Positions 7,858-30,515 of a DNA stretch of 36,992 nucleotides are shown in pieces. The notes below the pieces were generated by a model that was given only the letters and a program-made list of their open reading frames with translations, was not told where the DNA came from and made no database searches. The stretch lies in assembly GCF_000374165.1 (NCBI RefSeq), contig NZ_KB893755.1, positions 1-36,992 on the forward strand. The letters run 5' to 3'. Made by a program: the position numbers and the translations under genes. Source of the DNA: Parafrankia elaeagni. GTDB lineage: Bacteria; Actinomycetota; Actinomycetes; Frankiales; Frankiaceae. Positions within the stretch are counted from its first letter, which is position 1; each line of letters starts with the position of its first letter.

Positions 7858-8502
7858 ACCAGGACTCGACCGAGCCGCCCGCGGACAGCGCACCGATACT
7901 CCGCCGACGGCCGCTCTGGCCTGCACAAACACAAGCGCAAGGCATCCCACCCAAGCCGGACAGCTAGCGGCTATACAAATCCTGCCAGGGTGTGTACGTC
8001 ACCATGTAGAATCCTACGACGAACGGTTGATCGTTGAAGGATTTGACATCGGCCAAACTGCTCGAAGCTGAGCCTCATGGCTCGCCTCTCCAGTGGAGCG
8101 TGATGATGCCCGATATGCAACCCTCGCGATGCTATCGGCTGATTGCTGATATTGAAGGTCGGGCTGGCCAGTGCCAGGCTCCGCCAGCAGTATCGGGGAT
8201 CGCTCGGGATGGCGCGGGCAGGCGGTACCGGGTACTCGCCTGCGGGCAGCACGCAGATGATCTGCTGCGCATCAAGCCCGTTCCCCGCGTCTCGCGGCAG
8301 CTATTCCATCCACCCGCAGACGACGATGATCGATAGTCCGCGAATCGCGCCTCCCGTCGCCTGACACGTTCGCTCTCTATCCTGCCCGCAACATGATGCC
8401 CATGCTAGCCTAGTGGAAACTGGGCATTCGCGTGATCATGATCGATTCTATTCGGCGCGGCTCGGTGACACTATGGAGATTATAACCCGTCGGAGGAGGC
8501 CC
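7858..8502. other. Gene-free interval upstream of the methyltransferase
   Basis: No ORF here has a recognisable product or a good ribosome site. From about 7970 base composition becomes visibly richer in A/T than the DNA to the left, and stays so through the RiPP operon. The last 100 bases should hold the promoter for the gene starting at 8503. Confidence 0.45.
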
Positions 8503-9384
8503 ATGTCAGAGGCAAAGACTGATCAGTGGTTGGATTGGTTGACCGCAGGACGCGACGCGAAGAGCATCGAGATCCGCCGACGTTCGCTTAATATGCTTTT
8601 GCCTATCCGCGACCGCGTGCTCGATGCAGCTCGACTGCAGCCTGATGACATTGTATTGGACATTGGATGCGGGGAAGGTCTACTGGGAATCGGGGCGCTT
8701 GAACGACTTGGCGACAAGGGCCAGGTCGTCTTCTCTGATATATCGCTTCCGCTCCTAGAGCACACAGAAAACGCGATCAATGCACTCGGTGCCGATTCGC
8801 GATCGACATTCGTGCCCGCTGACATTCGTGACCTGGCGGAAGTGTGCGATGAGTCAGTCACTGTCGCTGTGGCGCGTTCCGTCCTGATCTATGTAGCTCA
8901 ACGTGAGGCGGCGTTTCGGGCGATCGCCCGGGTTCTGAAGCCGAAGGGGCGTCTATCGATCTATGAGCCCGTTGCCTCCTTTCTCGACGGAGCCGGCGAT
9001 GATGGATCATTTTTTGGCTGGGACGTTAGAGAGACCAAGGACCTAGCCGCGCTTGTAAAGGCTAGTTTTGGCCCTATAGATCAACCAATCCTCACGCTTG
9101 ATCCCCGCGACCTGGTGCACGCGGCTGAGTACGCTGGGCTTGACGATGTCCGCGCGTTGGTGACGGCATCGTCAGTCCGGCACTCTCCGGGAGATGAGCT
9201 CATTGTTCGCCAGGTGCTCGAGGGGCGTCCGAATCCGAACGCGCCGACGCCTACTGAGGCGGCCAGGAAATGTCTAGGGCCCGACCAGGCCGGGAGATTC
9301 CTGGAATCTCTCGCGGCCGCCGTGCGCGAAGGACGTGGCCGCCGCCGCTACACTGATGTGCTCCTGACGGCAACGAAGCCGTGA
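8503..9384 (+). CDS. Class I SAM-dependent methyltransferase
   Basis: The ATG at 8503 follows GGAGGAGG closely, which decides the start over the longer open frame. The 293-residue protein has the Rossmann methyltransferase core: motif I VLDIGCGEGLLGIGAL, an acidic strand-2 end VVFSDIS, an ADIRDL segment and a VLKPKGRLSIYEP post-motif. A C-terminal extension (about 100 residues) contains no further motif I recognise. The substrate is unknown. It is outside the minus-strand RiPP operon but beside it, and shares its lower-GC composition, so a role in methylating the RiPP product or in self-resistance is possible. The link to the cluster is inferred. Confidence 0.8.
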   Translation: MSEAKTDQWLDWLTAGRDAKSIEIRRRSLNMLLPIRDRVLDAARLQPDDIVLDIGCGEGLLGIGALERLGDKGQVVFSDISLPLLEHTENAINALGADSRSTFVPADIRDLAEVCDESVTVAVARSVLIYVAQREAAFRAIARVLKPKGRLSIYEPVASFLDGAGDDGSFFGWDVRETKDLAALVKASFGPIDQPILTLDPRDLVHAAEYAGLDDVRALVTASSVRHSPGDELIVRQVLEGRPNPNAPTPTEAARKCLGPDQAGRFLESLAAAVREGRGRRRYTDVLLTATKP

Positions 9385-9496
9385 CCAAAGCCAAGATTGC
9401 TAGGCACGCAGCGGCCTAGGAGCGCGAAATCTATCGGCCGCAAGCAGCTCCGCGCGACGGCTCGATCATGGTCTGGTGACTTGCAAATCCTCGGCC

Positions 9497-9571
9497 ATGG
9501 GCGAAAGGAAGGCGATCGTGGACTACGGATTCGTAGAGAATCCTAGCGGCTCGAACACGGCAGACGGCTGA
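9497..9571 (+). CDS. Possible 24-residue small ORF
   Basis: An ATG at 9497, or an in-frame GTG at 9518 preceded by GAAAGGAAGG, opens a short frame containing VDYGFVENPSGS and ending at 9571. The ribosome site for the GTG is good, but there is no homology argument. It may be a leader peptide for the GntR gene downstream, or chance. Confidence 0.2.
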   Translation: MGERKAIVDYGFVENPSGSNTADG

Positions 9572-9627
9572 CCTCGGCTGAGGCATCAACCCGGACACGG
9601 CGTCCAGCATTCTCAAGGGAATTCTGT

Positions 9628-9912
9628 GTGAGCGAGAACCTTGACCCAGACAGTGGCGTTCCACTCTACCGCCAGATCGCCGCACGACTAATGGAGGATA
9701 TCGACAGCGGTGTCTTCAAGCCAGGCGACAAGATCCCGACCGAGACCGAGTTATCCAGACATTACGGTGTATCTACCGCGACGATCAGGTCGGCCATGGG
9801 GATCCTCCAGCTCGGCGGGGTGGTGGTGCGCCGGCAAGGAGTCGGAACCTTCGTCGCGCGGCCGGCGCAACCCGCCGACGTAGCCCCCGATGACGATCCC
9901 ATGCAGTGCTGA
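9628..9912 (+). CDS. Short GntR/YtrA-type transcriptional regulator
   Basis: The GTG start is preceded by AAGGGA seven bases upstream. The 94-residue protein consists of a GntR winged helix: PLYRQIAARLMEDIDSG, FKPGDKIPTETELSRHYGVS, ATIRSAMGIL and the wing VVVRRQGVGTFVA. Typical GntR proteins add a ligand domain of 100 residues or more. Here only about 15 residues follow the wing, so it lacks a sensor domain, as in very short YtrA-like forms. The gene converges on tfuA with a 16-base gap. It is the nearest regulator of the RiPP operon and a candidate repressor of it. Confidence 0.88.
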   Translation: MSENLDPDSGVPLYRQIAARLMEDIDSGVFKPGDKIPTETELSRHYGVSTATIRSAMGILQLGGVVVRRQGVGTFVARPAQPADVAPDDDPMQC

Positions 9913-9928
9913 TGAATTACAGTCCGCC

Positions 9929-10678
9929 TCAGCCGGATCCCGCAGGGTGGGCATCTGTGGCGACCCGACGTAGAAGCCTTTCAAATGCGGCCGTATGAGC
10001 GAACGTGAAATCTTGCGCGGGGGCCTGGAAACTGGAGGCCACGTCGAGCGATACCCGTCGCAAAGCCTCCTCGGCATCAGCCATTTTCTGGTCGACTCGC
10101 CCCGTTGGCAACCATTCGTGCAGCGTGCGAAGCTCGCTTGAGGGGCAAATCGCCGAGGCCTGATCGATAAGTAGAGGATAGACACGGTCGGGATAGTGAG
10201 CGTTCTTCGCAAGTTTAACCAGGACATCCGATGTCTCCTGCGAAATAATGCCCTCCCGAGCAGCGCGCACCAACGTTATTCTCATATTGACCATCGCCTC
10301 GGATGCTAGCCGGTAGCCGCTCGCCGCTGGTCCGTGCATAACAGCGACTTCGTCATCGTCAGACAGTTCCCCAGAGGCAAAGCGGCTATAGATCTCGCCC
10401 ACGCCGACCATGCCGAATCTGTCGAGTTCCGCGGCGCGCAGCGCACCCATGCTGCTAGCGCCGAAGACTGGGATTCCCTCTTTGAGCGCCCACAGGATTT
10501 CCTTGTGCCATATCGCGGGAGCGGACTCAAAGATTCCGTCGATTATGACGATGGCCTGGGGTCGTACTAGTGCAGCTCGCAAGACATCGCCGCAGGCAGC
10601 GGGCTGAAGGAATTGCGCGTCGACGATGCGCTTGGCATCGCAACGCCCAAGTGTGGGCCCCAAAAATACCGTGATCAT
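9929..10678 (-). CDS. TfuA-like protein (YcaO partner, thioamidation)
   Basis: The 249-residue protein carries the TfuA core in full: ITVFLGPTLG, a GDVLRAAL segment, IVIIDGIFESAPAIWHKEIL, the hallmark GASSMGALRAAELDRFGMVG, and DDDEVAVMHGP. The ATG overlaps the stop of the upstream YcaO gene by four bases (ATGA), so the two are coupled. TfuA proteins act with a YcaO enzyme to turn a backbone amide into a thioamide, as known for methyl-coenzyme M reductase glycine and for thioviridamide-type peptides. TfuA is thought to help deliver sulfur. It is the last gene of the RiPP operon. The C-terminal third shows no known motif. Confidence 0.92.
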   Translation of the reverse strand: MITVFLGPTLGRCDAKRIVDAQFLQPAACGDVLRAALVRPQAIVIIDGIFESAPAIWHKEILWALKEGIPVFGASSMGALRAAELDRFGMVGVGEIYSRFASGELSDDDEVAVMHGPAASGYRLASEAMVNMRITLVRAAREGIISQETSDVLVKLAKNAHYPDRVYPLLIDQASAICPSSELRTLHEWLPTGRVDQKMADAEEALRRVSLDVASSFQAPAQDFTFAHTAAFERLLRRVATDAHPAGSG

Positions 10679-11907
10679 CTCGCGATTCCCCGCTCAAGCA
10701 TGCGGCGCAGAAGGCGCCGGCCATACCTGTAGTTCGCCTTGTAAGCTATACCTTCCAGGCCCTCAACGACTACCCGCGCGACAGCGAGACCCGACCCCTC
10801 GACCGACAGGTCACAGACGGCCGCCGTGGCCATGCCAGCCTTGTCGAGCGCGGCCAACTGGAAGTCGATCCAGTCTGCGAGGGTGACAGTCGGACACTCA
10901 GGGATCGATGCGAAGTCCGCCACCTCGGGCGTGATGTCCCGGCGCTGCTCCCGATCGTACGGGCCTTTGTACAGCGCTGCGATCAGGTCGTCCCGTCCGC
11001 CTGAGATGATGCCCAGACGGGACTGCGCGGCCTCGGTCAGGGCACGAAGCAGCGCGACTTCTCGAACCGGGTGGCAGCCTGAACCACGGCCCTCCGACGT
11101 CCTCCGATAGGGATTGTCGTGGTCCGATATCAGGCACAGAAACGCGGGTACCCGCACGTCGCTTGTGATGTTCCAGACCCGCGCGCTCACACCCGCAGCC
11201 TGGTACATGTCCAGCACTTCCCGGCACGATCGGGGAAGACCGCTATCCAGCCGCAGCCTAGTCCTGGTTCGCTCCTCGCGACCGAGGGCGAGCCACTGGG
11301 AGAGCGCATCACGTTCGATGAGCTCCGCGAGACCGTGGCATATCGCCTCAGCCAATGATGCGCCGGAGGCGAGACCATTAGTCGAAACCTGGAACGCCGA
11401 TAGGCCTGCGCCGCTCTGCAGGCGGTAATCGGTGTGTACGAGGTCGTAGGGGACGTAAAGCGTCGACCCTCGCACCAGATCCCGTCCCACAGACCACCAT
11501 ATGGGCACTGCCGTTACCCGGCCCCCAGCTCCCCGCACCCTCGGCAGAAGGAGCGGGTCCAACGCCTGATTCGCAGCCCCAGCTTCGTCATAGCTGAAAA
11601 GAGCATCGCGTGGCGCCGTCTCGGCATAAAATGTCTCGGCCGCCTCCATGAGGGCTGACGTCAACGCGGCGTCCAGCGTGACCCCCTTGCCCTGTGCCAC
11701 GGATATGGACATTGAGTTCGGTCGACACGCCATCGCAACGGGAATACCAATGTGATCAAGGCCCGTAATGTTGCTCACGCGGGTGATTCCCATGCTTGGT
11801 GCCAGCGGGAGAAGTCGATCCAGCATGGCGCGCGGCGACTCGCTGCGCCAGCCTCCCGCCTCGCGCGAGAGATCTACCTGTTCGGCGAGCGACCGTATCC
11901 AGCTCAT
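10675..11907 (-). CDS. YcaO-domain protein 2 (predicted thioamide synthetase partner of TfuA)
   Basis: The 410-residue YcaO protein has ATP-binding elements SALMEAAETFYAE (84-96), VSTNGLASG (174-182) and EAICHGLAELIERDAL (187-202). These match the conserved Glu-rich helices of the family, which phosphorylates a backbone amide oxygen. It lacks the PxPxP-type C-terminus typical of azoline-forming YcaOs, ending in LERGIAR. Its start overlaps the JmjC stop by one base (TGATG) and its stop overlaps tfuA, so pairing with TfuA for thioamidation is the best inference. The cluster has another YcaO at 14276-15487, so the two probably perform different chemistry on the same peptide. Confidence 0.92.
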   Translation of the reverse strand: MSWIRSLAEQVDLSREAGGWRSESPRAMLDRLLPLAPSMGITRVSNITGLDHIGIPVAMACRPNSMSISVAQGKGVTLDAALTSALMEAAETFYAETAPRDALFSYDEAGAANQALDPLLLPRVRGAGGRVTAVPIWWSVGRDLVRGSTLYVPYDLVHTDYRLQSGAGLSAFQVSTNGLASGASLAEAICHGLAELIERDALSQWLALGREERTRTRLRLDSGLPRSCREVLDMYQAAGVSARVWNITSDVRVPAFLCLISDHDNPYRRTSEGRGSGCHPVREVALLRALTEAAQSRLGIISGGRDDLIAALYKGPYDREQRRDITPEVADFASIPECPTVTLADWIDFQLAALDKAGMATAAVCDLSVEGSGLAVARVVVEGLEGIAYKANYRYGRRLLRRMLERGIAR

Positions 11908-13193
11908 CAGAAGATGCCGTCCGGATCGTCCACCAGGGACGGGACGAGGACACCTTCCGCGAGCAGGGCTCGTAGAACCTCATCCGCTAGGCGTGCGGGC
12001 ATCGCGTTGAGTAGTTCCCGGCGTCGAATCGTCCTGGCAGGCGTCAAAGTGAGCCAGGTCATGTCGGGAAGGGGGAAACGTAGCGGCCGATGGCCAACAC
12101 GATGGACCGCGCCCCAGCCGTCATTAGCCGGTCGGGAATCAGCGAGGCGGCGCGTCTGGATCACGGTATAGCAGTCGGCTCGCGCCGGCTCCGATATGGC
12201 TTCATGACTGTCCACCAGAGGAGATGCTCTCAGTAGAGACTCTGGCTGTAGACTGCCCAGAATGGCCAGTCGAAGACGCTCATTCGGTATCTCGGCAAGC
12301 GACCGGGACACAGCGTCAAATACTTCCGATACCGCCTCTTGAAGGCTCGCGGTGACGGTGAAACCGATTGGCAGATGGCCAACTAGCGAGCCGTCTACAT
12401 CGAGGAGGCGTACGAGTCGGCTGAGCAACTCGCCGATCCGAACGGGGTGGATTGCCACGGTCAAATGGATGGATGGTGTCTGCGTCGTCTGGGCGGCATG
12501 CAGCGTGCCCCTGGGTAGATATAGCACGTCGCCCGCAGCCAAGGTTTGCTCACGTGTCGACGACGTGGCTCCATTGATAATCCTCTGACGATCCAAGCTA
12601 TCCAGTTGCTGCCAGGGTTGGCGATTTTGCACGTTGCTCACACGAGGCCCTAGAATTGTCCATGTCTTTACGCCATCAATCTGGATAATCAACGCGTCAT
12701 GACTGTCGTAGTGAACACCGAATCCTCTGGAATCGCGCGGACTGACGTAAGCATTGATGCCAACCCTAGCACCTCGGGCGGCCGCCACTGAATGAGCAAG
12801 AGCCGTGATGGCAGGCGGCCCGAGGTGCAAAGAGTTGAGGACGATCGTATAGCCGTCCGAAAAGAGGGATGTCCGTTCCACCGCCGCCGCTGAGACGGTG
12901 GATATGGGTGCCTCCACGCCGTCACGAACAAATCTTATATCGTTCCGTGGTGCGCTTTCCGATATAATTTTGTCGACTATTGCCCAAGACATTAGTCGAC
13001 GAATCGTTCGGCCGGGAACCGCTCCCCCGACATATACCACCTCGTCTGCCAAAGATTCGAGCAGTGCATTGTCGAGCAGGTAACCTCCCGCCGGGCGGAC
13101 GCCGATTGCAGCAGGACCGTTCAATGTGGTGCGCCTAGCGGCGCTTTCCTTCCGAGGCGCAAGCCCGGAGGTTCGTGATATCGAATGTGTCAT
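11907..13193 (-). CDS. JmjC/cupin-type Fe(II)/2-oxoglutarate oxygenase
   Basis: The 428-residue protein contains the cupin_4/JmjC core of ribosomal-oxygenase-like enzymes: GVHYDSHDALIIQIDGVKTW, with iron ligands His161 and Asp163, then LAAGDVLYLPRGTLHAAQT with His232. The C-terminal half resembles the winged-helix/dimer part of such enzymes (LTPARTIRRRELL, MPARLADEVLRALL). Relatives hydroxylate amino-acid side chains in proteins, so a hydroxylase of the precursor peptide is likely. The ATG lies in the ATGA overlap with the SagB gene and is preceded by GGAGGCGAT. The enzyme has no assigned place in known YcaO-TfuA pathways that I recall. Confidence 0.85.
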   Translation of the reverse strand: MTHSISRTSGLAPRKESAARRTTLNGPAAIGVRPAGGYLLDNALLESLADEVVYVGGAVPGRTIRRLMSWAIVDKIISESAPRNDIRFVRDGVEAPISTVSAAAVERTSLFSDGYTIVLNSLHLGPPAITALAHSVAAARGARVGINAYVSPRDSRGFGVHYDSHDALIIQIDGVKTWTILGPRVSNVQNRQPWQQLDSLDRQRIINGATSSTREQTLAAGDVLYLPRGTLHAAQTTQTPSIHLTVAIHPVRIGELLSRLVRLLDVDGSLVGHLPIGFTVTASLQEAVSEVFDAVSRSLAEIPNERLRLAILGSLQPESLLRASPLVDSHEAISEPARADCYTVIQTRRLADSRPANDGWGAVHRVGHRPLRFPLPDMTWLTLTPARTIRRRELLNAMPARLADEVLRALLAEGVLVPSLVDDPDGIF

Positions 13194-14257
13194 ATCGCCT
13201 CCGCCAGCGGCACCGCCCGACGATTGACATGCCCGAAGGCAAATGCGCCGAGATATCCGTGATGTACAGGCTCCAAGCCCAGATCTAGACCGATCTGCTG
13301 GTCCGGCCCTCCGCCGATGGCGTACCCTCCGATTCCGAGCGCTTCGGCTTCAAGATATAGAGTCTGGAGAAGGGCGCCGGCGTCACGATGGACGACCGAT
13401 AGACCGAATTCCTGATATTTCCAAAGGGTGCGGCCGTATACGGCGGTGATTAGCAGGATTCCGGCAGGTGCGACAGCTGGGCTTATACCAGCATCATGTA
13501 TCGCGGCGAGGACTCCGCGCGAAAAATCTCTTGGGAATCTGTCTCTGCTCTGGTGTCGAACCAAGCTGCCACTCGGGTCAAAATAATACAGCCCACAGTC
13601 CAGCTCGGCGCAGCGGACCGAAATCAGGTAAATCTCGAGCGGATGCCGTGCACCACCAGAGGGGTAGGGTCTTCTGCTGACCGCCCGATCGGCACTAAGC
13701 CACTGAACTCCCGCCGCGTTGGTGAGAAAAGCGGAAAGCAGCTCGAAGGAGACCTCCTCGAGGAGGAATTCCCGGCGAGAGCGACGTCGTCGAAGTACCT
13801 CGCCAAAGGAGATCGCCATCGAGGGATCCCGAGGAGGAGGCCGGAGCGGTAGCCGCGGACCAGACACGTCAAGCGTCGGGGAAGGCATCGTCAGACTGTC
13901 GAGATGCTTACGTCGCTTGCCATGGCCGTACCGGCTGCGGGATGTGAGCTCGTTGGTGGTCCACCAGCCGAGCCGGACGTCAGCGCTCGGCCCGACCGGT
14001 TCGATGATCCCGGCTGCCAGAAGCCGGCCGGCGATGGGCCGCGGCAGCGTCGAGGTGGGCGAGCGCGAGGAATCTTCCGCACCCGACCCGGAGACGTCTC
14101 CGTCACCACCCATCTGGTCGAGCGCGACGGCGACAGCGGCCGAAACAGCACAGCGGCGGCCGGTAATTGCGCTCGTGCAGACCAGGGAGCCATTCTGCCA
14201 GCTCAACGACACGTGGGCCGCGCGACGATATCGAGGATGGTCCTGCATCTCCGGCAT
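13190..14257 (-). CDS. SagB-type FMN dehydrogenase (azoline oxidase)
   Basis: The 355-residue protein has an N-terminal region of about 140 residues and a C-terminal nitroreductase-fold domain. The domain shows RRRRSRREF, the hallmark YPSGGARHPLEIYLI, GLYYFDPSG, and a late HRDAGALLQTLYLEAEALGIGG. SagB/McbC-type enzymes use FMN to oxidise thiazolines and oxazolines to thiazoles and oxazoles. Start at ATG 14257, or nine bases later at 14248, where GGACGAAGGG is better spaced. The gene follows the first YcaO by 18 bases and overlaps the oxygenase by four. It predicts at least one aromatic azole in the product. Confidence 0.92.
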   Translation of the reverse strand: MPEMQDHPRYRRAAHVSLSWQNGSLVCTSAITGRRCAVSAAVAVALDQMGGDGDVSGSGAEDSSRSPTSTLPRPIAGRLLAAGIIEPVGPSADVRLGWWTTNELTSRSRYGHGKRRKHLDSLTMPSPTLDVSGPRLPLRPPPRDPSMAISFGEVLRRRRSRREFLLEEVSFELLSAFLTNAAGVQWLSADRAVSRRPYPSGGARHPLEIYLISVRCAELDCGLYYFDPSGSLVRHQSRDRFPRDFSRGVLAAIHDAGISPAVAPAGILLITAVYGRTLWKYQEFGLSVVHRDAGALLQTLYLEAEALGIGGYAIGGGPDQQIGLDLGLEPVHHGYLGAFAFGHVNRRAVPLAEAI

Positions 14258-14275
14258 CCCTTCGTCCTGTCAGGG

Positions 14276-15487
14276 TCACGCGAACGGCGATGGCTCTTGG
14301 CGGATGGGCGTCCGACGGGCGAACTCGCGCGTCCGACCCATCAGACGCGCGGCGTCGTGGCGCGCCTCCATTGCCTGTGCATGCGGCGCCAGCACACGCA
14401 CGACCTGGACCCGATCGTCATTCCGCAGGCGAAGCACAACGGCATCCGTTAGCGCTTCCGGGCCCGTGTCAAGGGAATCCTCCACCGGGGCAGCGGCGTT
14501 CCCGCTGCCAAGAAGCGCGTCCCGGACGAACCGGCAGCCGTCTGGGTGGGCGTAGTACCGGACGTGATCGAGAAAGTCGTTCACCTCCGCCACGGGCATC
14601 ATCTGGGAGACGCTCGCGAGGAAACGTATCTGGAGCGCCTCAGCGAGAGCGTGTTCCGCCGCACCGTCGAGATCCGTGTCCATGCTGCTTCCGATCCCCA
14701 AGAGTGGCCGCGTACTGCTCTCGGTCAGAACCACAACCAAAGGCGGGCGGTTGAGTTGGGGGACCGTATGAAATGTCGTGCGCCATCCGAGAGCTGCATC
14801 GCGCTCGCTCATACTGTGCCAGAAATGAGGCGGTTCGCTGGGGGTGAGGAGACCGCCGGTGAACCACATGTGGCGCAGAGTGTCACGCTCGAGAAGCTCG
14901 TCAAGGGCATGCTGAAGTGCCTGGTTGTAGTCTTTGCCGGCAGCTGTACCATTAGTCGTGAGCTCGCACAAGACAGGCCCGCTCCGGCTCTGTCCGGGAA
15001 AGGTCAAAGCGGCAGGGATGAGCACCTGCCCGCCAGTAGCGAGGTCGGTGGATAGAACCCAATCCAGAACGAGATCGGCATCGTAGCGGATGAATGGCCA
15101 AGCGGGTCCTTCGAGTGGCTGCCCGAGATACTCTCCGACCGAGAATACTCGGAACCCGGCGTCGCGTAGATCTGCCTCGCTGCCTTTTGCCTGGACCAGC
15201 GGCATGAAACACACCAGGGCAAGCCGCTCCGCAAGTTCCCCGCACAGTTTCATTACGGCTTCGGCCGGATCACGTGCGCATCCGGACGCCCGGACTGAAC
15301 GATGTTCGGGCACATCCAGTTCCGCGGTAAGCAGAACGAACTCCAAGAGCTCGACTGGCTGTCGATAATGGTAATAGCGAAGCTTGCGCCACGGTTCGGG
15401 AAGATTCTTTATTTGCTTCTCAAGCATCGCTGTGATTCGCTGGTGCCAGGCGAGAGGGGCAAAGATTGAAACAGGTATCTCCCGCAT
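14276..15487 (-). CDS. YcaO-domain protein 1 (predicted azoline-forming cyclodehydratase)
   Basis: The 403-residue YcaO has MKLCGELAERLAL (79-91), ELTTNGTAAG (175-184) and ALQHALDELLERDTL (190-204), matching the ATP-binding helices of the family. Its C-terminus, RTPIRQEPSPFA, is proline-rich, like that of cyclodehydratases, whose tail enters the active site. The ATG at 15487 overlaps the stop of the PqqD-like gene (TGATG). That protein probably supplies leader binding, as fused or separate recognition domains do in other azole peptide systems. No E1-like (ThiF) partner is visible in the cluster. It is grouped with SagB and so probably makes the Cys/Ser/Thr-derived azolines. Confidence 0.92.
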   Translation of the reverse strand: MREIPVSIFAPLAWHQRITAMLEKQIKNLPEPWRKLRYYHYRQPVELLEFVLLTAELDVPEHRSVRASGCARDPAEAVMKLCGELAERLALVCFMPLVQAKGSEADLRDAGFRVFSVGEYLGQPLEGPAWPFIRYDADLVLDWVLSTDLATGGQVLIPAALTFPGQSRSGPVLCELTTNGTAAGKDYNQALQHALDELLERDTLRHMWFTGGLLTPSEPPHFWHSMSERDAALGWRTTFHTVPQLNRPPLVVVLTESSTRPLLGIGSSMDTDLDGAAEHALAEALQIRFLASVSQMMPVAEVNDFLDHVRYYAHPDGCRFVRDALLGSGNAAAPVEDSLDTGPEALTDAVVLRLRNDDRVQVVRVLAPHAQAMEARHDAARLMGRTREFARRTPIRQEPSPFA

Positions 15488-15762
15488 CACTGCGTCGCCA
15501 CCAAGCCCAGTTCCGTCCACGTCATGAGCAGGGCGGATACATCACTGCGGATCCGTTCGGGCTCGCCGTCATACTTCCCCAGAAGTTCCGTCACGAGATC
15601 ACCGATGGATGCCGGTTCCTCGAGAGAATTCCACACCGCTAGCGCTGTGCGCTCTACCTTCACCCATCGCCGGCCATCGGAACTCAAGAAGTACCCGGTA
15701 TCGATCTCCTCGACCTCCAATGAGTCGCTTTTTCTGAAGAAGATGTTCGAGTTGATGCTCAA
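15487..15762 (-). CDS. PqqD-like RiPP recognition element
   Basis: This 91-residue protein has the PqqD fold pattern: a strand pair SDGRRWVKVERTALAVW, then SIGDLVTELLGKY and a final helix DVSALLMTWTELGLV. Such winged-helix proteins bind RiPP leader peptides and bring them to the modifying enzymes. The only in-frame start is TTG at 15762, because a TAG precedes it. The TTG has AGAAGGA seven bases upstream, inside the end of the peptidase gene. It is translationally coupled to the YcaO that follows, its likely partner. Confidence 0.88.
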   Translation of the reverse strand: MSINSNIFFRKSDSLEVEEIDTGYFLSSDGRRWVKVERTALAVWNSLEEPASIGDLVTELLGKYDGEPERIRSDVSALLMTWTELGLVATQ

Positions 15763-15766
15763 TTCA

Positions 15767-16369
15767 TCATCCTTCTACTTTACCGGAGGTGGCCGGCATG
15801 GTTCGCCGTATGGCCTCCGTATGTGTGACTACGGCTCCCAGGTGAACGGCGAGAAAGCGTATCGCCTCGGCGGCCAGGGCGCGGAAACGTCGCCCAGCTG
15901 TTCGCTCTCTCCACGAGTAGTGTCCGGCGCAGGCTATCATCCGGCCGCAGATCTGAGTTATTCGTCCGCGGTCACTATAGCGCTGTTTACCGGTGGCGAG
16001 GCGGACCGAGAGAACCACGGCCAAGACATCATGGTCCGGCAGCCACGTGATCCCGTACGGGCTGCGTGAGGGCTGGTGGTCGGCCGTCTGCAGCACACGC
16101 CCTCCCGCGGTGTCCACTCTAATGCAGCGATGTACGGCGAGAAAACTTCCCCAGTTCACCAGGATAAGACAGCCGGGTCGCAGGTTGCCTATTTGATCGG
16201 TCCAGCGCACGTTCGCGACGCATAGCCCTTTGAACGTCGGCGACATACTTCCCGAGTCGAGGATGTTTACCTCAGTCATTCGCCCCAATTGGCCATAATG
16301 GCGGCGAATTATGCGGCGCGCGTCATTTCGGGACCACGCTTTGGAGGCTGGCACGGCGGGCTGGCTCAT
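15767..16369 (-). CDS. S26-type signal-peptidase-like protein (possible leader peptidase)
   Basis: The 200-residue protein has the S24/S26 peptidase core: LDSGSMSPTFKG with nucleophile Ser41, a strand GCLILVNW, and FLAVHRCIRV with His80, followed by LQTADHQ. Bacterial type I signal peptidases use a Lys general base. A VHR motif at this place is typical of the SipW/eukaryotic-type group that uses Ser-His, so this looks like a Ser-His enzyme. There is no obvious N-terminal membrane anchor, which suggests a cytoplasmic role such as cutting the leader of the RiPP precursor. A weakly hydrophobic segment near 175-185 might touch the membrane. The ATG overlaps the upstream gene by four bases. Confidence 0.75.
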   Translation of the reverse strand: MSQPAVPASKAWSRNDARRIIRRHYGQLGRMTEVNILDSGSMSPTFKGLCVANVRWTDQIGNLRPGCLILVNWGSFLAVHRCIRVDTAGGRVLQTADHQPSRSPYGITWLPDHDVLAVVLSVRLATGKQRYSDRGRITQICGRMIACAGHYSWRERTAGRRFRALAAEAIRFLAVHLGAVVTHTEAIRRTMPATSGKVEG

Positions 16370-17643
16370 CGCCGATTACCCAGCAGATAGGGCGCATCGC
16401 CCTGCGAAGCCGTCACCTCGGCGACGCCGCGGTGAGCCCAGACCTCTGGGGGGAAACGATCTCGGATCGATATCGCCGTTCCGAGGGGGAGAAGTCCTCG
16501 TAGTTCGGTGGGTATCGGCTGTACAACCCTGCCCGCCACCTCGTCGCGATTAACCGGCCAGTCATCGGTCATTAGTAGTGCGGATGCATCCCCACATTCG
16601 ATTACAATTCCGCGCTTCCGGAGCCTCTCGTCTTGGAGGAGACGCGCGGCCTGGGATTCGAAAGGGCCCGCTCGGCCGAGAAGCTTCAGCCGAGGTGTGA
16701 TGCGGCCGCAGTCGCATCGGCCGTATATCACCGCACCGAGATCACCCAGTTCATAGCGCACGAACGGCGTGGCGGTGTTCAGAAGGTCGGTCACGACCAA
16801 GTGGCCGACGACTCCTGACTTCTGGGGCTGGCCGGACGTGGAGGAGATCACCTCGACCAGCACGGCATCCACGTTTATATGGAGAAAAGAACAGCCAGCC
16901 GGCCGGAACGCGACTGGTGCCGTTAACTCGGCAGCAACGTACAATTCATAGGGTGCCTCCGCCTGCGCGCCCGCACGGCCCTCCAGCAGGCCGCGGGTCG
17001 GCTCGGAGACCTCCCACGCGGACGCTAGACGGTTCCGGTTCACCAGGCCGTCCTGGATGAGAGTTCGGCAGATTCGCGGGGATGTGACAACTAGGCCATC
17101 CCGCGGGAGGCGCCCGATGTCGTCGAGGCTGAGAACCCGGTACCCAATCCGCCAATCGTAGAGGGTATGCCGGCGGCCGGACGAGCCGCGCCACGGCGTC
17201 AGGACCGTCAACTCGAAGAACGACGGCAGGCCGATCGATGAGTAGAGCCGGCGGTCGATAGCGGCGCGTTCGACGACGGCGTCGCGGGGCCGTGCGAGTT
17301 GCGTGGGTAGCCCACTGGTCCCTGAGGTGACCCGCACGTCGACCGGACCAGGGTCGCCGGCGACAAGGCGGTGGAGGCTGTTCCGTATCTTTTCCTTGCG
17401 AAGAACGCTCACCTGATTGAGAAGGTTTCGCGCCGCTAAGTCAACCGGCTCATCCCGCCCTGGGCGGTCGACAGAACCGGCGTGTTCGAGGAGGGAGAGC
17501 AGAGCGGCTTGGTCGTATGCTGAAGCTGTCGCGGCGGCCGCCAGGACTTTCGGTAGTCGGGAATGAATACGGTCCAGCAGAAGGTCCGCCGAGCGCTCGG
17601 CCGCGAGCGCCTCGCGTACCCGCTGGGACAGCCCTATCGCCAT
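16366..17643 (-). CDS. PaaK-like adenylate-forming enzyme
   Basis: The 425-residue protein resembles phenylacetate-CoA ligase. It has the P-loop-like VTSGTSGLPTQ (105-115), a HLVVTDLLNTATPFVRYELGDLG block and GRCDCGRITPRLKLLGRAG, the end of the main adenylation domain. Such enzymes activate a carboxylate as acyl-AMP and pass it to CoA, an amine or a carrier. In a RiPP operon it could acylate the peptide N-terminus or activate its C-terminal carboxylate; neither is shown. The open frame extends to a GTG at 17754, but that lies in the hairpin at 17741-17777 and has no ribosome site. I choose the ATG at 17643, which overlaps a well-started small ORF and is probably translated by coupling. Confidence 0.82.
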   Translation of the reverse strand: MAIGLSQRVREALAAERSADLLLDRIHSRLPKVLAAAATASAYDQAALLSLLEHAGSVDRPGRDEPVDLAARNLLNQVSVLRKEKIRNSLHRLVAGDPGPVDVRVTSGTSGLPTQLARPRDAVVERAAIDRRLYSSIGLPSFFELTVLTPWRGSSGRRHTLYDWRIGYRVLSLDDIGRLPRDGLVVTSPRICRTLIQDGLVNRNRLASAWEVSEPTRGLLEGRAGAQAEAPYELYVAAELTAPVAFRPAGCSFLHINVDAVLVEVISSTSGQPQKSGVVGHLVVTDLLNTATPFVRYELGDLGAVIYGRCDCGRITPRLKLLGRAGPFESQAARLLQDERLRKRGIVIECGDASALLMTDDWPVNRDEVAGRVVQPIPTELRGLLPLGTAISIRDRFPPEVWAHRGVAEVTASQGDAPYLLGNRR

Positions 17644-17696
17644 CCAGCGATGCCCCGGCAAACCGGCGAAAGCTCGGAGCCTAGGACGGGAGACAT
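17634..17696 (-). CDS. Small ORF (20 residues) coupled to the PaaK-like gene
   Basis: The ATG at 17696 has GGAGG eight bases upstream, one of the best ribosome sites in the operon. It encodes MSPVLGSELSPVCRGIAGWR and ends in a TAG that overlaps the ATG of the adenylating enzyme (ATGGCGATAG). It may be a coupling peptide that brings ribosomes to the next gene, a second very small precursor, or the sign of a frameshift in the real 5' end of the PaaK-like gene. Confidence 0.4.
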   Translation of the reverse strand: MSPVLGSELSPVCRGIAGWR

Positions 17697-17740
17697 CTGC
17701 CAATCCTCCACCTCTCTCGTGCCAAAAGCGACCGCAAGAG

Positions 17741-17777
17741 GGTGTGGGGCGCACCGCGGTGCGGCCCGCCCCACACC
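17741..17777 (-). terminator. Hairpin between precursor and enzyme genes (attenuator)
   Basis: GGTGTGGGGCG (17741-17751) pairs perfectly with CGCCCCACACC (17767-17777), and the loop contains the palindrome GCACCGCGGTGC centre. It starts eight bases after the precursor stop codon. There is no T-run, so it would act as a partial terminator or an RNA stabiliser. This arrangement commonly gives more precursor than enzyme. Confidence 0.65.
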
Positions 17778-17785
17778 CCGCCGGA

Positions 17786-17911
17786 CTAGAGGTCCAGCGT
17801 CAGATCGCTGCAGAAGCTGGCGAACGCCGTCTCCATGTCGGCGCTCTCTTCGATCTGCTCCACCTCGAGAACATCTGCCCGCGGCTCTTCCCAATGCGGC
17901 TTCTCGTTCAT
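17786..17911 (-). CDS. RiPP precursor peptide (41 residues)
   Basis: The ATG at 17911 follows GGAGG by four bases (AAGT), and the frame ends at TAG 17786-17788. The N-terminal part (MNEKPHWEEPRADVLEVEQ) and IEESADME are acidic, as in leader peptides bound by PqqD-like domains. The C-terminal end AFASFCSDLTLDL has one Cys, two Ser and one Thr that YcaO/SagB chemistry could convert, so the core probably starts within residues 28-32. It is the first gene after a sigma70-type promoter and directly precedes the full set of modifying enzymes. No family is recognised. Identity as the precursor is inferred from size, leader-like composition and position, which together are strong. Confidence 0.85.
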   Translation of the reverse strand: MNEKPHWEEPRADVLEVEQIEESADMETAFASFCSDLTLDL

Positions 17912-17946
17912 ACTTCCTCCATCCTGTAGCCAATGTGGCAGCCTCG

Positions 17947-17975
17947 AAGATAGATATCGAAATTGCGGCCGTCAA
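17947..17975 (-). promoter_or_regulatory. Promoter of the YcaO-TfuA RiPP operon
   Basis: Read on the minus strand, TTGACG (17970-17975) is followed after exactly 17 bases by TATCTT (17947-17952). These are near-consensus -35 and -10 boxes for the main sigma factor. The start would fall near 17940, leaving a leader of about 30 bases before the precursor ATG. Confidence 0.7.
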
Positions 17976-24744: not shown

Positions 24745-25941
24745 CTAGTAGCGCAGTACCAGGCGGTTCTCTGGCTTGGTTATGATCTTGCCTTGCGTCT
24801 GGTTCGGGATCGGCGTGCCGGCCGGGAAGGCGAGGATTTTGGGGTCGGCAGTGCGGTCGTGGTCCCAGGCGTCGATCTGGTCGACGATCCGTGAGGCGAG
24901 ACGGTGACCGAGGGGGCCGTGGCCGATGGCGCCGAGCTGCCAGCGCCCTGGGGTGTCGGCGCGCCGGATGGTGAAGTAGGCCAGTGAGCCGTCTTTGACC
25001 AGGGCTGGGCTGCGTGAGGCGATCGCGGGTGTGCACAGCCCGTCGGCGACGGCCTGCTGGTCGGCCTCGATGCGGACCGTGCCGTCTTCCACGGCGCTGA
25101 GGTGGAGCCAGACGCGGTCGAAGGGTTCCTGGCCGTGCACGGTGACGTCAGACCAGATTGTGGACTTCTCTCGGTCGAGGACACCGCGCAGGGCGTCGGT
25201 GTCGATGGGCTGGTCGAGATCGTGGTGCAGGGCGGCGAGGTCGTTGGGGTGGATGACGCTCCTCCGTTCGCCGGGCTGGCCGAGCATGGGGACGAAGCCG
25301 CACAGGAAGACCCAGTCGGACTTCCAGTGGTTTTCCTGTTTGGTGAGTGCGACGGCGCGGGTGGTGCCGCGCCAGCGCAGCGGGAGGACGAGGCGGCCAT
25401 CGGGGGCGAGTTGCTCCCACCAGGCATGCGGGATGTCCCAGGCGCCGACCGTGACGATGATCCGATCGAAGGGGCCGTCCTCGGCAGCGCCGTCGGCGCC
25501 GTCGCGGGTGAGAACGCGGACGTGGGGGAAGCTGGTGTCGTCAAGGTTGCGCCGTGCTGCGGCGGTGACGTCGGCGTTGATGTCGATGGTGGTGACCTGG
25601 CCGCCGGCTCCCACAAGGGTGGCGAGGAGGGCCGCGTTGTAGCCGGTGCCGGCGCCGATTTCCAGGATGCGCTGGTCGGGCCGGATGTCGAGGGCGGTGA
25701 GCATGGCGGCCACGATGGTGGGGCCAGAGGCGCAGCTGAGGTGGGTGCCGTCGGGGAAGGTGTGGGTGATGACCGCCTTCTCGTCGTAGGCGTCGGCCAG
25801 TGGCGTCTCGGGGACGTAGCGGTGGCGTTCGACGGAACGCAGCGCCGTTTCGACCCACGGGGGCAGATCCTGGCTGGTGAGGATGCGGTCGACCATGCGG
25901 TCGCGCAGCGTGCCTGGTGATGTGGCTGCGGTGGTGTCCAT
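24745..25941 (-). CDS. FxLD-system methyltransferase (isoaspartate-methyltransferase type)
   Basis: The 398-residue protein has a PCMT-like domain: RHRYVPETPLADAYDEKAVI, SCASGPTIVAAML, motif I ILEIGAGTGYNAALLATLVG, and IIVTVGAWDIP, with an additional C-terminal domain of about 170 residues. Protein-L-isoaspartate methyltransferase homologues in lanthipeptide clusters methylate an Asp of the ring peptide, which can then rearrange to isoaspartate through a succinimide. FxLD clusters carry a dedicated member. The gene follows LanC by 63 bases. The core of the nearby precursor has two Asp residues (45 and 48) that could be targets. Confidence 0.9.
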   Translation of the reverse strand: MDTTAATSPGTLRDRMVDRILTSQDLPPWVETALRSVERHRYVPETPLADAYDEKAVITHTFPDGTHLSCASGPTIVAAMLTALDIRPDQRILEIGAGTGYNAALLATLVGAGGQVTTIDINADVTAAARRNLDDTSFPHVRVLTRDGADGAAEDGPFDRIIVTVGAWDIPHAWWEQLAPDGRLVLPLRWRGTTRAVALTKQENHWKSDWVFLCGFVPMLGQPGERRSVIHPNDLAALHHDLDQPIDTDALRGVLDREKSTIWSDVTVHGQEPFDRVWLHLSAVEDGTVRIEADQQAVADGLCTPAIASRSPALVKDGSLAYFTIRRADTPGRWQLGAIGHGPLGHRLASRIVDQIDAWDHDRTADPKILAFPAGTPIPNQTQGKIITKPENRLVLRY

Positions 25942-26004
25942 CAGTCTCCTTCACAGCGGCAGGGGGCATGGTGGTGACAGCGGCCTCGGTCGGGTGACCA
26001 ACTG

Positions 26005-27183
26005 CTAGTTGATCAACAGGCAGTGGTCCCAGTCTGGCAGCGTCAGATCGGATGTGATCTTCAGGGCAGCGTGGGCGAGTGCGATGCCGGCCGCGCCGTC
26101 TAAGAAACCCGCGGGGGTAGGGTCGCTGTTGCCGCGGAGGTACTGGTGCCTGTGTGTTTCGGCGGCGTGCAGGGCGGCGGAGAGTTCGCCGGTGCTGGTG
26201 TCGGCCGTGGCCCGGTGGGCGGTCAGGAGGAGGCCGGCCCAGCCGTGGCAGAGACCCGCGTCGGTGAGCTGCGCGAGCTGGTGGTCGTCGGTGAGATATC
26301 CGATGAGGGTCTCGACCGCATCGAAGGCTCTTTGTTGGTCACCGAGGGCGAGGGCCGCGAGGTGTTCGGCTCGGGCGATTCCGGGACTGCCGTAGCACCA
26401 GGACGGTCGAGGCGGCCCCGGGGAGGTTGCACTGCCGGTACGCAGCTCGTTGTGGTCGATCACCTCGGGCCACCAGCCTGTCCTCCTCTGCCCTCTGCGC
26501 CACTGGTCGAGCCACGCGATGATGGTGTGGAGCGCGTCGACGTGTCCCGCCATGGCGATGCCCCGTCGCTTGGCGATGGCCAGGAGCGCCAGCGGTCCGG
26601 CGATGCCGTGGGCCATGCCGAAGCCGGCGTGGCCGGCGTTCCATCGGGCGGAGGCGCGGCGGTCGGGGCTGCCCGTCGCCCACCAGCCGGGCAGGTCCCG
26701 GCCGTCGACACGGATGGGTCGCGTGAGTCGCACCAGGTACGCGAGCACGTCCCGGAGAAGAGCGCTTTCGCGGTCGCGGTGTAAGAGGAGTGCGCCGAAG
26801 CCGGTGAGTCCGTTGATCAGGTCGTACTCGCCGGCGTAGGGCATCTGCCCGTGATCGATGCGGCGGTGGGCGGCCTCCAGACGGTGTCGGATGACGGTGG
26901 CGATAGCGTCGTCGAGGGTGGCGAGCACGGCGTCGTAGGCCCGGTGGCCGGCGGTGTGCAGGGTGTAGGCGACGGCCGGTGCGCCCTGGTACAGGCTGGC
27001 GGTGTCCGGATGGGCGTTGAGCGGGCTTCGTGTCATCGCCGTCGCGAGGCGGTGCACCGGTTCCCAGCCGTCGAGGCCGGCGCGGGCACGAGCGATATAC
27101 GCCAGTGCGATCCCTGGTGCTCCGTCGCCGAGGGACTGGGCCCAGCGCGCCGATTCGGCAGGGATGCGGGGCAGCGTGGTCAC
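26005..27183 (-). CDS. Lanthionine cyclase, LanC-like
   Basis: The 392-residue protein has the LanC toroid repeats. Zinc ligands are visible in SWCYGSPG (Cys263) and LCHGWAG (Cys312, His313), and a GMAHGIAGPLALL repeat lies at about 189-201. It catalyses addition of Cys thiols to dehydroalanine or dehydrobutyrine to close thioether rings. Its ATG overlaps the LanB stop by four bases, so the two are made together. Confidence 0.93.
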   Translation of the reverse strand: MTTLPRIPAESARWAQSLGDGAPGIALAYIARARAGLDGWEPVHRLATAMTRSPLNAHPDTASLYQGAPAVAYTLHTAGHRAYDAVLATLDDAIATVIRHRLEAAHRRIDHGQMPYAGEYDLINGLTGFGALLLHRDRESALLRDVLAYLVRLTRPIRVDGRDLPGWWATGSPDRRASARWNAGHAGFGMAHGIAGPLALLAIAKRRGIAMAGHVDALHTIIAWLDQWRRGQRRTGWWPEVIDHNELRTGSATSPGPPRPSWCYGSPGIARAEHLAALALGDQQRAFDAVETLIGYLTDDHQLAQLTDAGLCHGWAGLLLTAHRATADTSTGELSAALHAAETHRHQYLRGNSDPTPAGFLDGAAGIALAHAALKITSDLTLPDWDHCLLIN

Positions 27184-30100: not shown

Positions 30101-30248
30101 CCCATACGGCGCATAGCCACGACCGGCACGAGTCCTGATCGGACAACGTCGGCCAGTCCTCCGGCTGCTGGGACAGCGGAAGGACCGCCGCCCGCAGCAT
30201 CGCACCGCCAGCATGGCGGTACAGCGGCACCTCCACGTTGACCATCAC
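27180..30248 (-). CDS. Class I lantibiotic dehydratase (LanB), full length
   Basis: The 1022-residue protein combines the glutamylation domain and the C-terminal elimination (SpaB_C/thiopeptide-type) domain of full-length LanB. Signs of the first are RRVTLAVVRYLLRSLGRPTPFGLFAG and the GVHPAWAFGTLTCRFG and PRVRYRRAILSPATWR blocks. Signs of the second are GSWLYAQIFTHPERLDDIL, WFARYRSVRETDHLRLRI and TLATYHPEIGRYGSGAAMDA. It uses glutamyl-tRNA to activate Ser/Thr and then eliminates glutamate. Start at ATG 30248, 76 bases after the precursor stop; that gap may hold a partial terminator. It is coupled to LanC. Confidence 0.95.
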   Translation of the reverse strand: MMVNVEVPLYRHAGGAMLRAAVLPLSQQPEDWPTLSDQDSCRSWLCAVWALPGFAEAIRYASGSFAAQVEAVLDDQAAGGKQVRRVTLAVVRYLLRSLGRPTPFGLFAGVAGVRIGEDVRVYWGSAHRLVLRADTLWLDDVVERLEMLPDLLAHLDVLACDLLVERGDRIEMPRGPGRVTVRNTAVMRLVRDLAAKPIPFHLLLDQVALAFPAAPAPAVRRVLGDLVAQGILITGLRAPMTETDPLAHVAAVVERAMVGDGEATAAMLGELRATQQLIRAHNDDHVEPGAQARLREEASERMRRLSPAGRTSLAGDLHLDCDIAVPADVADEMAQAVGALLRLTRQPRPDQGWNDWCREFWDRYGTGALVPVLDAVHPDTGIGWPAGFPGSMLAEPEDTVSQRDQELLRLAWETVTAGHHELVLTDSLIAAITADRPVDPRWIPPHVELGARVHAASVEALAAGDYTFGVHPAWAFGTLTCRFGSAVGRAGLDTVFAAAPAAVEGALPVQMSFPPLFPHSENVSRVPRWLSRVLPVGEHRADESTVIRLDDLGIVAVADGLHLVSISRRQVVEPQVFHALALRKQAPPLARFLATLTRGFLARFTEFDWGPLAACLPYTPRVRYRRAILSPATWRISTADHTALRADGHSWEDAFARWRQRGAYPDIVELHDDHRSLRLDLTVDAHLAILREHLDKHGRATLTETDSVEDTGWIGGHVHEVVLPFVRAVPAAPNLVTGNLPVVTSANAAHRPASPHGSWLYAQIFTHPERLDDILRTHLPRLRDLLDGDRPYWFARYRSVRETDHLRLRIRTASPEEYTAVACAVGQWGQQLCDAGAASRLTLATYHPEIGRYGSGAAMDAAEAVFAADSHAVATALQLPTPLAVHPMALTAVGMVDIADGFHADPVHANAWLLTHLATKAGPGADRTVTEQVTRWAARRTLPGGTSLPAALAQTWQARREALTRYRLALPGNADADQVLSALLHMHHNRARLIDRADEAICRRLARQITLTRRARTTADSP

Positions 30249-30324
30249 ACCTCCGTCTCACGCTGCGGTCGCCGGCTCGCCGAGCGGGCGCGACCGGCGA
30301 GCCGGCGCCGCAGCCGTCACCGGG

Positions 30325-30510
30325 TCAGTCGCTGGCGCACGCCGAGGCGCAGGTCGAACCACAGGTGTCGCTCGTGTCGCACGCCCGGATCGTGTATCCG
30401 GGCGCCGCCTCGACCGTCACCTGCACATCGAGCTGGAACTCGTCCCGCAGGCCGAGCGGTGTCGCCTCGGTCCGCTCCAGAACCGCACTCGCGGAACCAC
30501 CAAGCGTCAT
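30325..30510 (-). CDS. FxLD-family lanthipeptide precursor
   Basis: The 61-residue peptide contains the family motif in EFQLDVQV (the FxLD box, residues 25-28) of class I leaders. It ends with a Cys-rich core: IRACDTSDTCGSTCASACAS then D, with four Cys (44, 50, 54, 58) and several Ser/Thr. AAGGGG lies nine bases before the ATG at 30510. An in-frame ATG at 30516 would add two residues but is too close to that site. It is the first gene of the LanB-LanC-methyltransferase set. The cleavage point is not obvious; it may follow VEAAPGY or AAP. Confidence 0.92.
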   Translation of the reverse strand: MTLGGSASAVLERTEATPLGLRDEFQLDVQVTVEAAPGYTIRACDTSDTCGSTCASACASD

Positions 30511-30515
30511 GGTCA

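What the first reader, a model, noticed from the sequence alone, without database searches (positions are those of the whole stretch)
9929..17975. Probable undescribed RiPP system: two YcaOs, TfuA, SagB, JmjC oxygenase, PaaK-like enzyme and S26-like peptidase in one operon
Nine enzyme and precursor genes on one strand overlap or nearly touch, behind one near-consensus promoter. YcaO plus TfuA predicts a thioamide. A second YcaO plus PqqD-like protein and SagB predicts azoles. The oxygenase and the adenylating enzyme predict further hydroxylation and acylation or capping. I know clusters with some of these parts (trifolitoxin: YcaO and SagB; thioviridamide type: YcaO-TfuA), but not this full set with this precursor.
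Basis: partly seen in the sequence, partly recalled or inferred. Interest (0 to 1): 0.92.

Follow-up and report, generated by a model that had tools for sequence, protein, structure and literature searches.

The report
Orphan two-YcaO modified-peptide operon
A nine-gene bacterial operon that probably makes a heavily modified short peptide by putting both a sulfur-for-oxygen swap and a ring into a 41-residue precursor; most parts are of known kinds, and this combination turned up nowhere else in the genomes that were searched.

Summary
Nine co-directional minus-strand ORFs (9929-17911) overlap or nearly touch. Profile searches confirm PqqD, two YcaOs, SagB, a JmjC oxygenase and TfuA. The PaaK-like and S26-like labels are weaker: the first matches mainly over residues 270-380 of 462 and lacks a C-terminal lysine that 12 of 14 homologues have; the second rests on motifs. 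In a YcaO tree, YcaO-1 falls with 29 TfuA-adjacent YcaOs and YcaO-2 with 22 others; YcaO-2 ends in P-x-P, as do 21 of those 22 but 2 of the 29. Best reading: a RiPP operon installing a thioamide (YcaO-1/TfuA), an azole (PqqD/YcaO-2/SagB) and probably a hydroxyl near the C-terminus of the 41-residue precursor. In the 26 other TfuA neighbourhoods of a 394-genome class sample, no match (E<=1e-3) to the precursor, PaaK-like, S26-like or PqqD protein was seen. Clusters joining a YcaO-TfuA pair to a second YcaO and dehydrogenase, and TfuA's involvement in trifolitoxin, are in print. So: a rare, untested new variant of a known kind.

The parts
17947..17975 (-). promoter-like site TTGACG-17-TATCTT; start of transcription would lie about 30 nt before the precursor ATG (inference)
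   Evidence: 9 of 12; 3 sites against 1.8 expected in shuffles: weak
17786..17911 (-). candidate precursor peptide, 41 aa; acidic leader (10 D/E in the first 31 residues) and C-terminal SFCSDLTLDL
   Evidence: upstream ggaggaagt|ATG, G+C at codon positions 1/2/3 0.64/0.33/0.83; in 36 family genomes found only in its own
17740..17778 (-). strong hairpin between precursor and next gene (no T-run): possible attenuator that gives more precursor than enzyme
   Evidence: -46.5 kcal/mol, z -3.65, 0 of 200 shuffles as stable; I5, I8
16366..17754 (-). PaaK-like protein, 462 aa, TSGTSGLP motif present, C-terminal catalytic-type lysine absent; start codon uncertain
15767..16369 (-). putative S26-like (SipW-type) serine peptidase, G-S41-M-S-P-T ... 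V-H80-R
   Evidence: motif, NCBIfam SipW E=0.061; no Pfam hit; no match in plasmids at E<=0.01; only weak hits in 11 other of 296 genomes
15487..15762 (-). stand-alone PqqD-like RiPP recognition element
   Evidence: Pfam PF05402 7.1e-12
14276..15487 (-). YcaO-2, azol(in)e-type, C-terminus EPSPFA (403 aa from the ATG; 414 aa from the GTG at 15520)
   Evidence: PF02624 8.5e-27, TIGR03604 6.8e-27 below cut-off, P-x-P end and tree place
13190..14257 (-). SagB-family flavin dehydrogenase
   Evidence: TIGR03605 103.9 bits over the cut-off of 78.4; a WKY stretch shared with the solved SagB-type dehydrogenase 8pz5
11907..13193 (-). JmjC oxygenase of the NO66/MINA type, iron ligands H161, D163, H232
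   Evidence: PF08007 1.6e-23, NO66 structure 8.8e-12, motif
10675..11907 (-). YcaO-1, thioamide-forming type
   Evidence: PF02624 2.3e-64, best solved match MJ1094 5.7e-25, grouped with TfuA-adjacent YcaOs
9929..10678 (-). TfuA, sulfide-releasing partner of YcaO-1; S76 and K198 kept
   Evidence: PF07812 9.5e-48, NF033432 216.5 vs cut-off 235.2, conservation in 31 rows
8413..9384 (+). SAM methyltransferase on the opposite strand in the same lower-G+C block; possible tailoring gene, membership unproven
9628..9912 (+). short GntR-type regulator, convergent with tfuA; possible regulator, membership unproven
   Evidence: PF00392 8e-21

Best explanation
The operon makes one ribosomal peptide with two kinds of YcaO-made backbone change. 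(1) PqqD binds the acidic leader of the 41-residue precursor (inferred). (2) TfuA releases sulfide from thiocarboxylated ThiS and YcaO-1 swaps a backbone oxygen for sulfur to give a thioamide (family knowledge; site unknown). (3) YcaO-2 uses ATP to cyclise the backbone at Cys34 (possibly also Ser/Thr) to an azoline and SagB oxidises it to an azole (family knowledge; site inferred; the order of 2 and 3 is open). (4) The JmjC enzyme hydroxylates a side chain, most likely in the D-L-T-L-D-L tail (inferred). (5) The S26-like peptidase cuts off the leader, perhaps after the signal-peptidase-like A29-F30-A31, releasing a modified SFCSDLTLDL (speculative). (6) The PaaK-like protein does not look like a normal adenylating ligase; its role is open. 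Shown here: gene content, open frames, operon layout, separation of the two YcaO types, kept iron ligands of the oxygenase. Everything about the product is inferred.
For: Families and scores; contiguous operon; YcaO-1 with 29 TfuA-adjacent YcaOs and YcaO-2 with 22 others, one change on the tree, 84% of 200 bootstrap trees, P-x-P ends 2 of 29 vs 21 of 22; TfuA S76 and K198 kept in 30 and 31 of 31 rows; three ThiS-family genes in the same genome as possible sulfur carriers; precursor with strong Shine-Dalgarno and coding-like composition followed by a stable hairpin; YcaO-TfuA-JmjC in a row also in L078. Precedent for thioamide followed by hydroxylation in one RiPP: the std cluster (PMC13174530 abstract and passages).
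Against: No second genome with the cluster or the precursor was seen, so no conservation supports the precursor or the core. YcaO-2 sits on a very long branch (2.44) and its exact place may be long-branch attraction; it misses the TIGR03604 cut-off (94.3 vs 219.25) and there is no C protein. The core has one Cys; 6 of the last 20 residues are C/S/T, below the 45% that PMC4603692 asked of TOMM precursors (passage). The A-x-A motif arises in 26% of shuffles of the peptide. No transporter or immunity gene is among the nine.
Confidence: 0.62

Rival explanations
1. Only one of the two YcaOs does the predicted chemistry: YcaO-2 makes something else (for example an amidine) or is a helper, and SagB oxidises something other than an azoline.
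For: YcaO-2 is extremely divergent: at E<=1e-15 only 2 of 394 class genomes incl. its own match (at most 4 candidates per genome scored); no C protein; single Cys in the core.
Against: ERD and E-x-x-Q-x-R stretches of the ATP site (motifs as recalled) are present, P-x-P end as in 21 of 22 non-TfuA YcaOs, SagB next to it over its cut-off; Streptomyces NBC_01707 has a small ORF, a YcaO and a SagB in a row with no C protein listed (that gene table is incomplete).
Confidence: 0.2
2. The YcaO-1/TfuA pair thioamidates a housekeeping protein and only happens to lie next to a smaller azole RiPP operon.
For: YcaO-1 best resembles MJ1094 and TfuA the McrA-glycine thioamidation family; relatives in Azospirillum and a Chloroflexi MAG stand as a pair without the other parts.
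Against: YcaO-1 overlaps the JmjC gene by 1 nt and TfuA by 4 nt inside the operon; YcaO-TfuA pairs of RiPP clusters belong to the same families.
Confidence: 0.1
3. The true precursor is another small ORF or a distant gene; the 41-residue ORF is a leader-like regulatory peptide.
For: No convincing homologue of the 41-residue peptide in the searches made; its best plasmid hit lies in a LuxR-like reading frame.
Against: First gene of the operon, strong ribosome site, acidic leader with a Cys-containing tail, codon-position composition of a gene.
Confidence: 0.1

Closest known systems
Trifolitoxin (tfxABCDEFG plus tfuA, Rhizobium anhuiense T24)
   Same: YcaO believed to act without a C protein (PMC4603692 passage), azole-modified peptide (PMC9670871 abstract), tfuA involved in production; the SagB-type TfxB and the short precursor are recalled
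   Different: here TfuA and a YcaO of its own lie in the same operon; PqqD, JmjC, PaaK-like and S26-like genes are extra; similarity of precursors or proteins was not tested (the tfx cluster is chromosomal, and I had no record of it)
TfuA-YcaO clusters with a further YcaO and a flavin dehydrogenase (PMC8120280, section 13 with Fig. 5 legend)
   Same: thioamide pair plus second YcaO plus nitroreductase-family dehydrogenase in some clusters; PqqD appears among the labels of the figure
   Different: most of those carry fused YcaO-cyclodehydratase and split lanthipeptide dehydratases, absent here; the word JmjC does not occur in the paper
Nakamurella sp. PAMC28650 cluster among dehydrazole pathways (PMC10676384 passage)
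   Same: a second YcaO beside TfuA in an azole-type pathway
   Different: dehydrazoles also carry Ser dehydration (abstract); no dehydration enzyme here
std cluster of Streptomyces thermodiastaticus (PMC13174530 abstract and passages)
   Same: YcaO-TfuA thioamidation followed by hydroxylation and a peptidase step, characterised in vitro
   Different: hydroxylase is an MNIO; no SagB, JmjC or nitroreductase in the text; the authors list the YcaO-TfuA RiPP classes known to them, and thiopeptides are the only azole peptides among them
   Same: YcaO, TfuA and JmjC in a row
   Different: three JmjC-family genes; no match to SagB, PqqD, PaaK-like or S26-like protein

Membership tests
Thioamidated RiPP (YcaO-TfuA) | ycaO next to tfuA | tested here: met
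   overlap of 4 nt, PF02624 and PF07812 over cut-off
Thioamidated RiPP (YcaO-TfuA) | YcaO of the TfuA-associated group | tested here: met
   tree of 53 rows, support 85/93
Thioamidated RiPP (YcaO-TfuA) | thioamide in the product | not testable with these tools
   needs MS
TOMM / linear azol(in)e peptide | YcaO with P-rich C-terminus (rule recalled, contrast measured here) | tested here: met
   EPSPFA; 21 of 22 non-TfuA YcaOs have P-x-P in the last 10 residues
TOMM / linear azol(in)e peptide | C protein (E1/ocin-ThiF), separate or fused | tested here: not met
   none among the nine proteins; stand-alone PqqD instead
TOMM / linear azol(in)e peptide | FMN dehydrogenase (B protein; present in part of TOMM clusters) | tested here: met
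   TIGR03605 over cut-off
TOMM / linear azol(in)e peptide | C-terminal half at least 45% Cys/Ser/Thr (rule of PMC4603692) | tested here: not met
   6 of the last 20 residues (rule)
Trifolitoxin family | YcaO without C protein, SagB, short precursor, and TfuA (part of this list recalled) | tested here: met
Trifolitoxin family | sequence relationship to TfxA-TfxG | not tested
   no record of the T24 tfx cluster fetched; the 1996 paper is not held
Thioamitides (thioviridamide type) | cysteine decarboxylase and Ser/Thr dehydration enzymes (recalled) | tested here: not met
   no such family among the nine proteins
Adenylating PaaK/ANL ligases | C-terminal catalytic lysine (rule recalled) | tested here: not met
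   D in the column where 12 of 14 aligned homologues have K
S26 signal peptidases | profile match and Ser with Lys or His base | tested here: inconclusive
   motifs only, E=0.061, single-sequence model pLDDT 48

The most novel reading that the evidence does not exclude
A new RiPP class: a decapeptide-scale product in which two YcaOs of different kinds act on one short core (thioamide and azole side by side) with a JmjC hydroxylation, matured by a SipW-like peptidase after A-x-A, and with a lysine-less PaaK homologue that has left adenylation for another step, such as docking the peptide or ligating its C-terminus.
Probability: 0.25. Interest if true: 0.75.

Novelty: new variant of a known kind. 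Interest (0 to 1): 0.5.

Why it matters
What TfuA does in making trifolitoxin, an azol(in)e antibiotic, is not explained in the passages read here. This operon holds a YcaO/SagB pair and a complete YcaO-TfuA pair around one 41-residue substrate, so the division of labour between the two YcaO kinds can be tested directly with co-expression and a mass spectrometer. The lysine-less PaaK-like protein and the orphan peptidase may carry new chemistry.

Tried and rejected
Precursor homologue in Sinorhizobium plasmids (3 records, E 0.8-2): the one I opened lies in a LuxR-like reading frame, dropped as chance. Chance hit of the precursor (13 residues, E 0.007) in a frame of L005 away from its YcaO-TfuA pair: dropped. 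P0003 in 296 genomes: 11 other genomes at E 0.003-0.007 and 16-20 bits, not inspected, treated as chance. Single-sequence AlphaFold of the S26-like protein (pLDDT 48.1) and of SagB residues 1-140, tried for a hidden recognition element (pLDDT 39.3): not used. PaaK-like neighbourhoods: all 11 non-own places and 3 more were fetched (L115-L128); apart from the PaaK-like protein the only match to the nine was a JmjC about 6 kb away in L126. Viral contigs with P0005 and P0002: no relative. Rfam over 8-19 kb: nothing. Tandem YcaO pairs of family genomes (L099-L105): a different two-YcaO system with no TfuA match in the stretches. Limits: tblastn may miss a diverged 91-aa PqqD or 41-aa precursor; in the class searches only 4 to 6 (10) candidates per genome were scored; six of the 26 TfuA stretches are cut by contig ends to 4.9-17.1 kb and one to 19.1 kb, and two (L059, L079) show no YcaO-1 match. 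From the phylum search only the short locus L145 of the one new genome was looked at. In plasmids, 25 of 294 records were listed for YcaO-1 and 12 of 353 for TfuA, and few were opened.
Full report
What is there. Nine minus-strand ORFs run from the precursor at 17911 to the end of tfuA at 9929 with gaps of 31, -4, 4, -34, 18, -4, -1 and -4 nt. The -34 overlap goes if YcaO-2 starts at the ATG at 15487, which shares TGATG with the stop of pqqD (sequence). Pfam and NCBIfam place six of the nine firmly: PqqD, YcaO twice, SagB-type nitroreductase, JmjC_2, TfuA. G+C at codon position 3 is 0.60-0.83 in the nine genes, against 0.83-0.89 in seven other genes of the window; the methyltransferase (0.60) and GntR gene (0.74) at 8413-9912 share the lower range and the lower-G+C block. 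Beyond the block lie an rve-type and a Mutator-type transposase on one side, and a DDE transposase and a serine recombinase on the other. This looks like an acquired island (inference).

The two YcaOs are of two kinds. I collected 51 YcaO rows from the TfuA neighbourhoods, L005, the family genomes and four plasmid loci, added the two of the window, and built a tree. The 30 TfuA-adjacent rows incl. YcaO-1 and the 23 others incl. YcaO-2 separate with one change (support 85/93; 84% of 200 bootstrap trees). P-x-P within the last ten residues occurs in 2 of 29 TfuA-adjacent and 21 of 22 other rows; YcaO-2 has it (EPSPFA), YcaO-1 does not. YcaO-2 has the longest end branch, and the program warns that long branches meet there, so its exact neighbours are unsure. 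That a proline-rich C-terminus marks azoline-forming YcaOs is recalled; the contrast is measured here. YcaO-1 best matches the solved MJ1094.

The other parts. TfuA keeps S76 (30 of 31 rows) and K198 (31 of 31); a Ser-Lys pair in TfuA hydrolysing ThiS-COSH is stated in PMC13185837 (passage), but that these two residues are that pair is my inference. The genome has three ThiS-family genes. The oxygenase keeps H161-x-D163 and H232 and resembles NO66/MINA hydroxylases. SagB is over its cut-off and shares a WKY stretch with a solved SagB-type dehydrogenase. The PaaK-like protein has the TSGTSGLP loop, but has D in the column where 12 of 14 aligned homologues have a lysine, which speaks against normal acyl-adenylate formation. 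The S26-like protein shows G-S-M-S-P-T and V-H-R, both inside the stretch of the weak SipW match (residues 36-94, E 0.061); no match was found in plasmids and only weak ones in 11 other of 296 genomes.

The precursor. The 41-residue ORF has ggaggaagt before its ATG, ten acidic residues in 31 and the tail SFCSDLTLDL. A-F-A before that tail fits signal-peptidase-type cutting, but A-x-A turns up in 26% of shuffles. A hairpin of -46.5 kcal/mol (z -3.65) separates it from the enzymes, as expected if precursor should outnumber enzymes (inference). No relative of it was found: among 36 family genomes only its own, none in the fetched TfuA neighbourhoods at E<=1e-3, only chance-level hits in plasmids.

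How rare is the set? TfuA: 25 of 394 class genomes incl. the own and 7 of 396 phylum genomes, 6 of which were already. All 26 TfuA places outside the own genome were fetched and compared with the nine proteins at E<=1e-3: none matches precursor, PaaK-like, S26-like or PqqD; a partial SagB match lies about 9 kb away in L060; JmjC lies near in L077 and L078; two further YcaOs lie in L054. The own genome's second TfuA place (L080) has a SagB match about 8 kb away. YcaO-2: 2 of 394 at E<=1e-15 incl. the own, and 9 of 36 family genomes incl. the own at E<=1e-6. PaaK-like: 10 of 394 at E<=1e-10 incl. the own, the others matching 82-164 residues (254 in G135). In plasmids the best listed TfuA matches are Azospirillum and Indioceanicola at 49-52% and the best YcaO-1 matches Paracoccus, Azospirillum and Indioceanicola at 40-44%. 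In three loci that I opened of those listed (one Azospirillum, one Paracoccus, one Rhizobium) the pair stands without a match to the other parts. So the pair seems to have joined the operon from a lineage shared with alphaproteobacteria and Chloroflexi (inference; tree support there 91/53 to 99/97, with the actinomycete-class row L054 in the same group).

What is known. Searches for YcaO+TfuA+SagB+thioamide and thioamid+TfuA+JmjC found no paper; JmjC+RiPP+YcaO, Frankia+YcaO, TfuA+azole+thioamide, YcaO+TfuA+RiPP+precursor and a looser six-term search gave 1, 5, 9, 20 and 122 (20 listed) papers; two on trifolitoxin gave 5 and 8. Of these I opened nine, seeing section 13 of PMC8120280 and passages of PMC6511847, PMC8120280, PMC12710340, PMC4603692, PMC8939145, PMC13185837, PMC10676384, PMC9670871 and PMC13174530; none of what I saw describes this set. 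The library holds open-licence papers only and supplements could not be read, so absence from print is not shown. PMC8120280 reports TfuA clusters with a second YcaO and flavin dehydrogenase; PMC10676384 a cluster with YcaO-TfuA among dehydrazole pathways; PMC12710340 notes JmjC homologues in RiPP-like contexts; PMC13174530 characterises a YcaO-TfuA pathway with later hydroxylation. PMC4603692 says that the trifolitoxin YcaO is believed to act without a C protein, and tfuA is named as involved in its production. A small ORF, YcaO and SagB lie in a row in Streptomyces NBC_01707, and two rhizobial plasmids carry TOMM-type clusters with three YcaOs and SagB.

Verdict. The operon is real, its frames are open, and it is unmatched in what was searched. 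It is best read as a trifolitoxin-like azole core joined to a YcaO-TfuA thioamide pair, with extra tailoring, that is, a new variant of a known kind. The product is a prediction. I score it 0.5: a good target whose individual chemistries are mostly of known families and whose novelty lies in the combination and in two poorly understood proteins.

Noticed in passing
24745-30717 (minus strand): An FxLD class I lanthipeptide cluster: precursor (TIGR04363, 48.4 vs cut-off 30), LanB, LanC, FxLD methyltransferase.
   Followed up: partly
L080 (G000:C52:25000-44900): A second large RiPP-like locus in the same genome: a peptide ending CACCCPCCCS, an ABC-type protein, a SagB match, an 811-aa YcaO, B12-radical SAM, TfuA, another YcaO and a small ORF.
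   Followed up: partly
L078 (G168:C14:820000-839900): A thioamide-type cluster with three JmjC-family genes, YcaO, TfuA, a large peptidase-like frame (judged by eye) and a CmcI-type methyltransferase; a small ORF at 15006-15233 may hold its precursor.
   Followed up: partly
10196-10213 and 17395-17412: A perfect 18-nt inverted repeat between the tfuA and PaaK-like coding regions, 7.2 kb apart; unexplained.
   Followed up: no
L099-L105: Family genomes carry tandem pairs of YcaOs, all ending in P-x-P, without a TfuA match; L054 (G287) has such a pair next to a YcaO-TfuA pair.
   Followed up: partly
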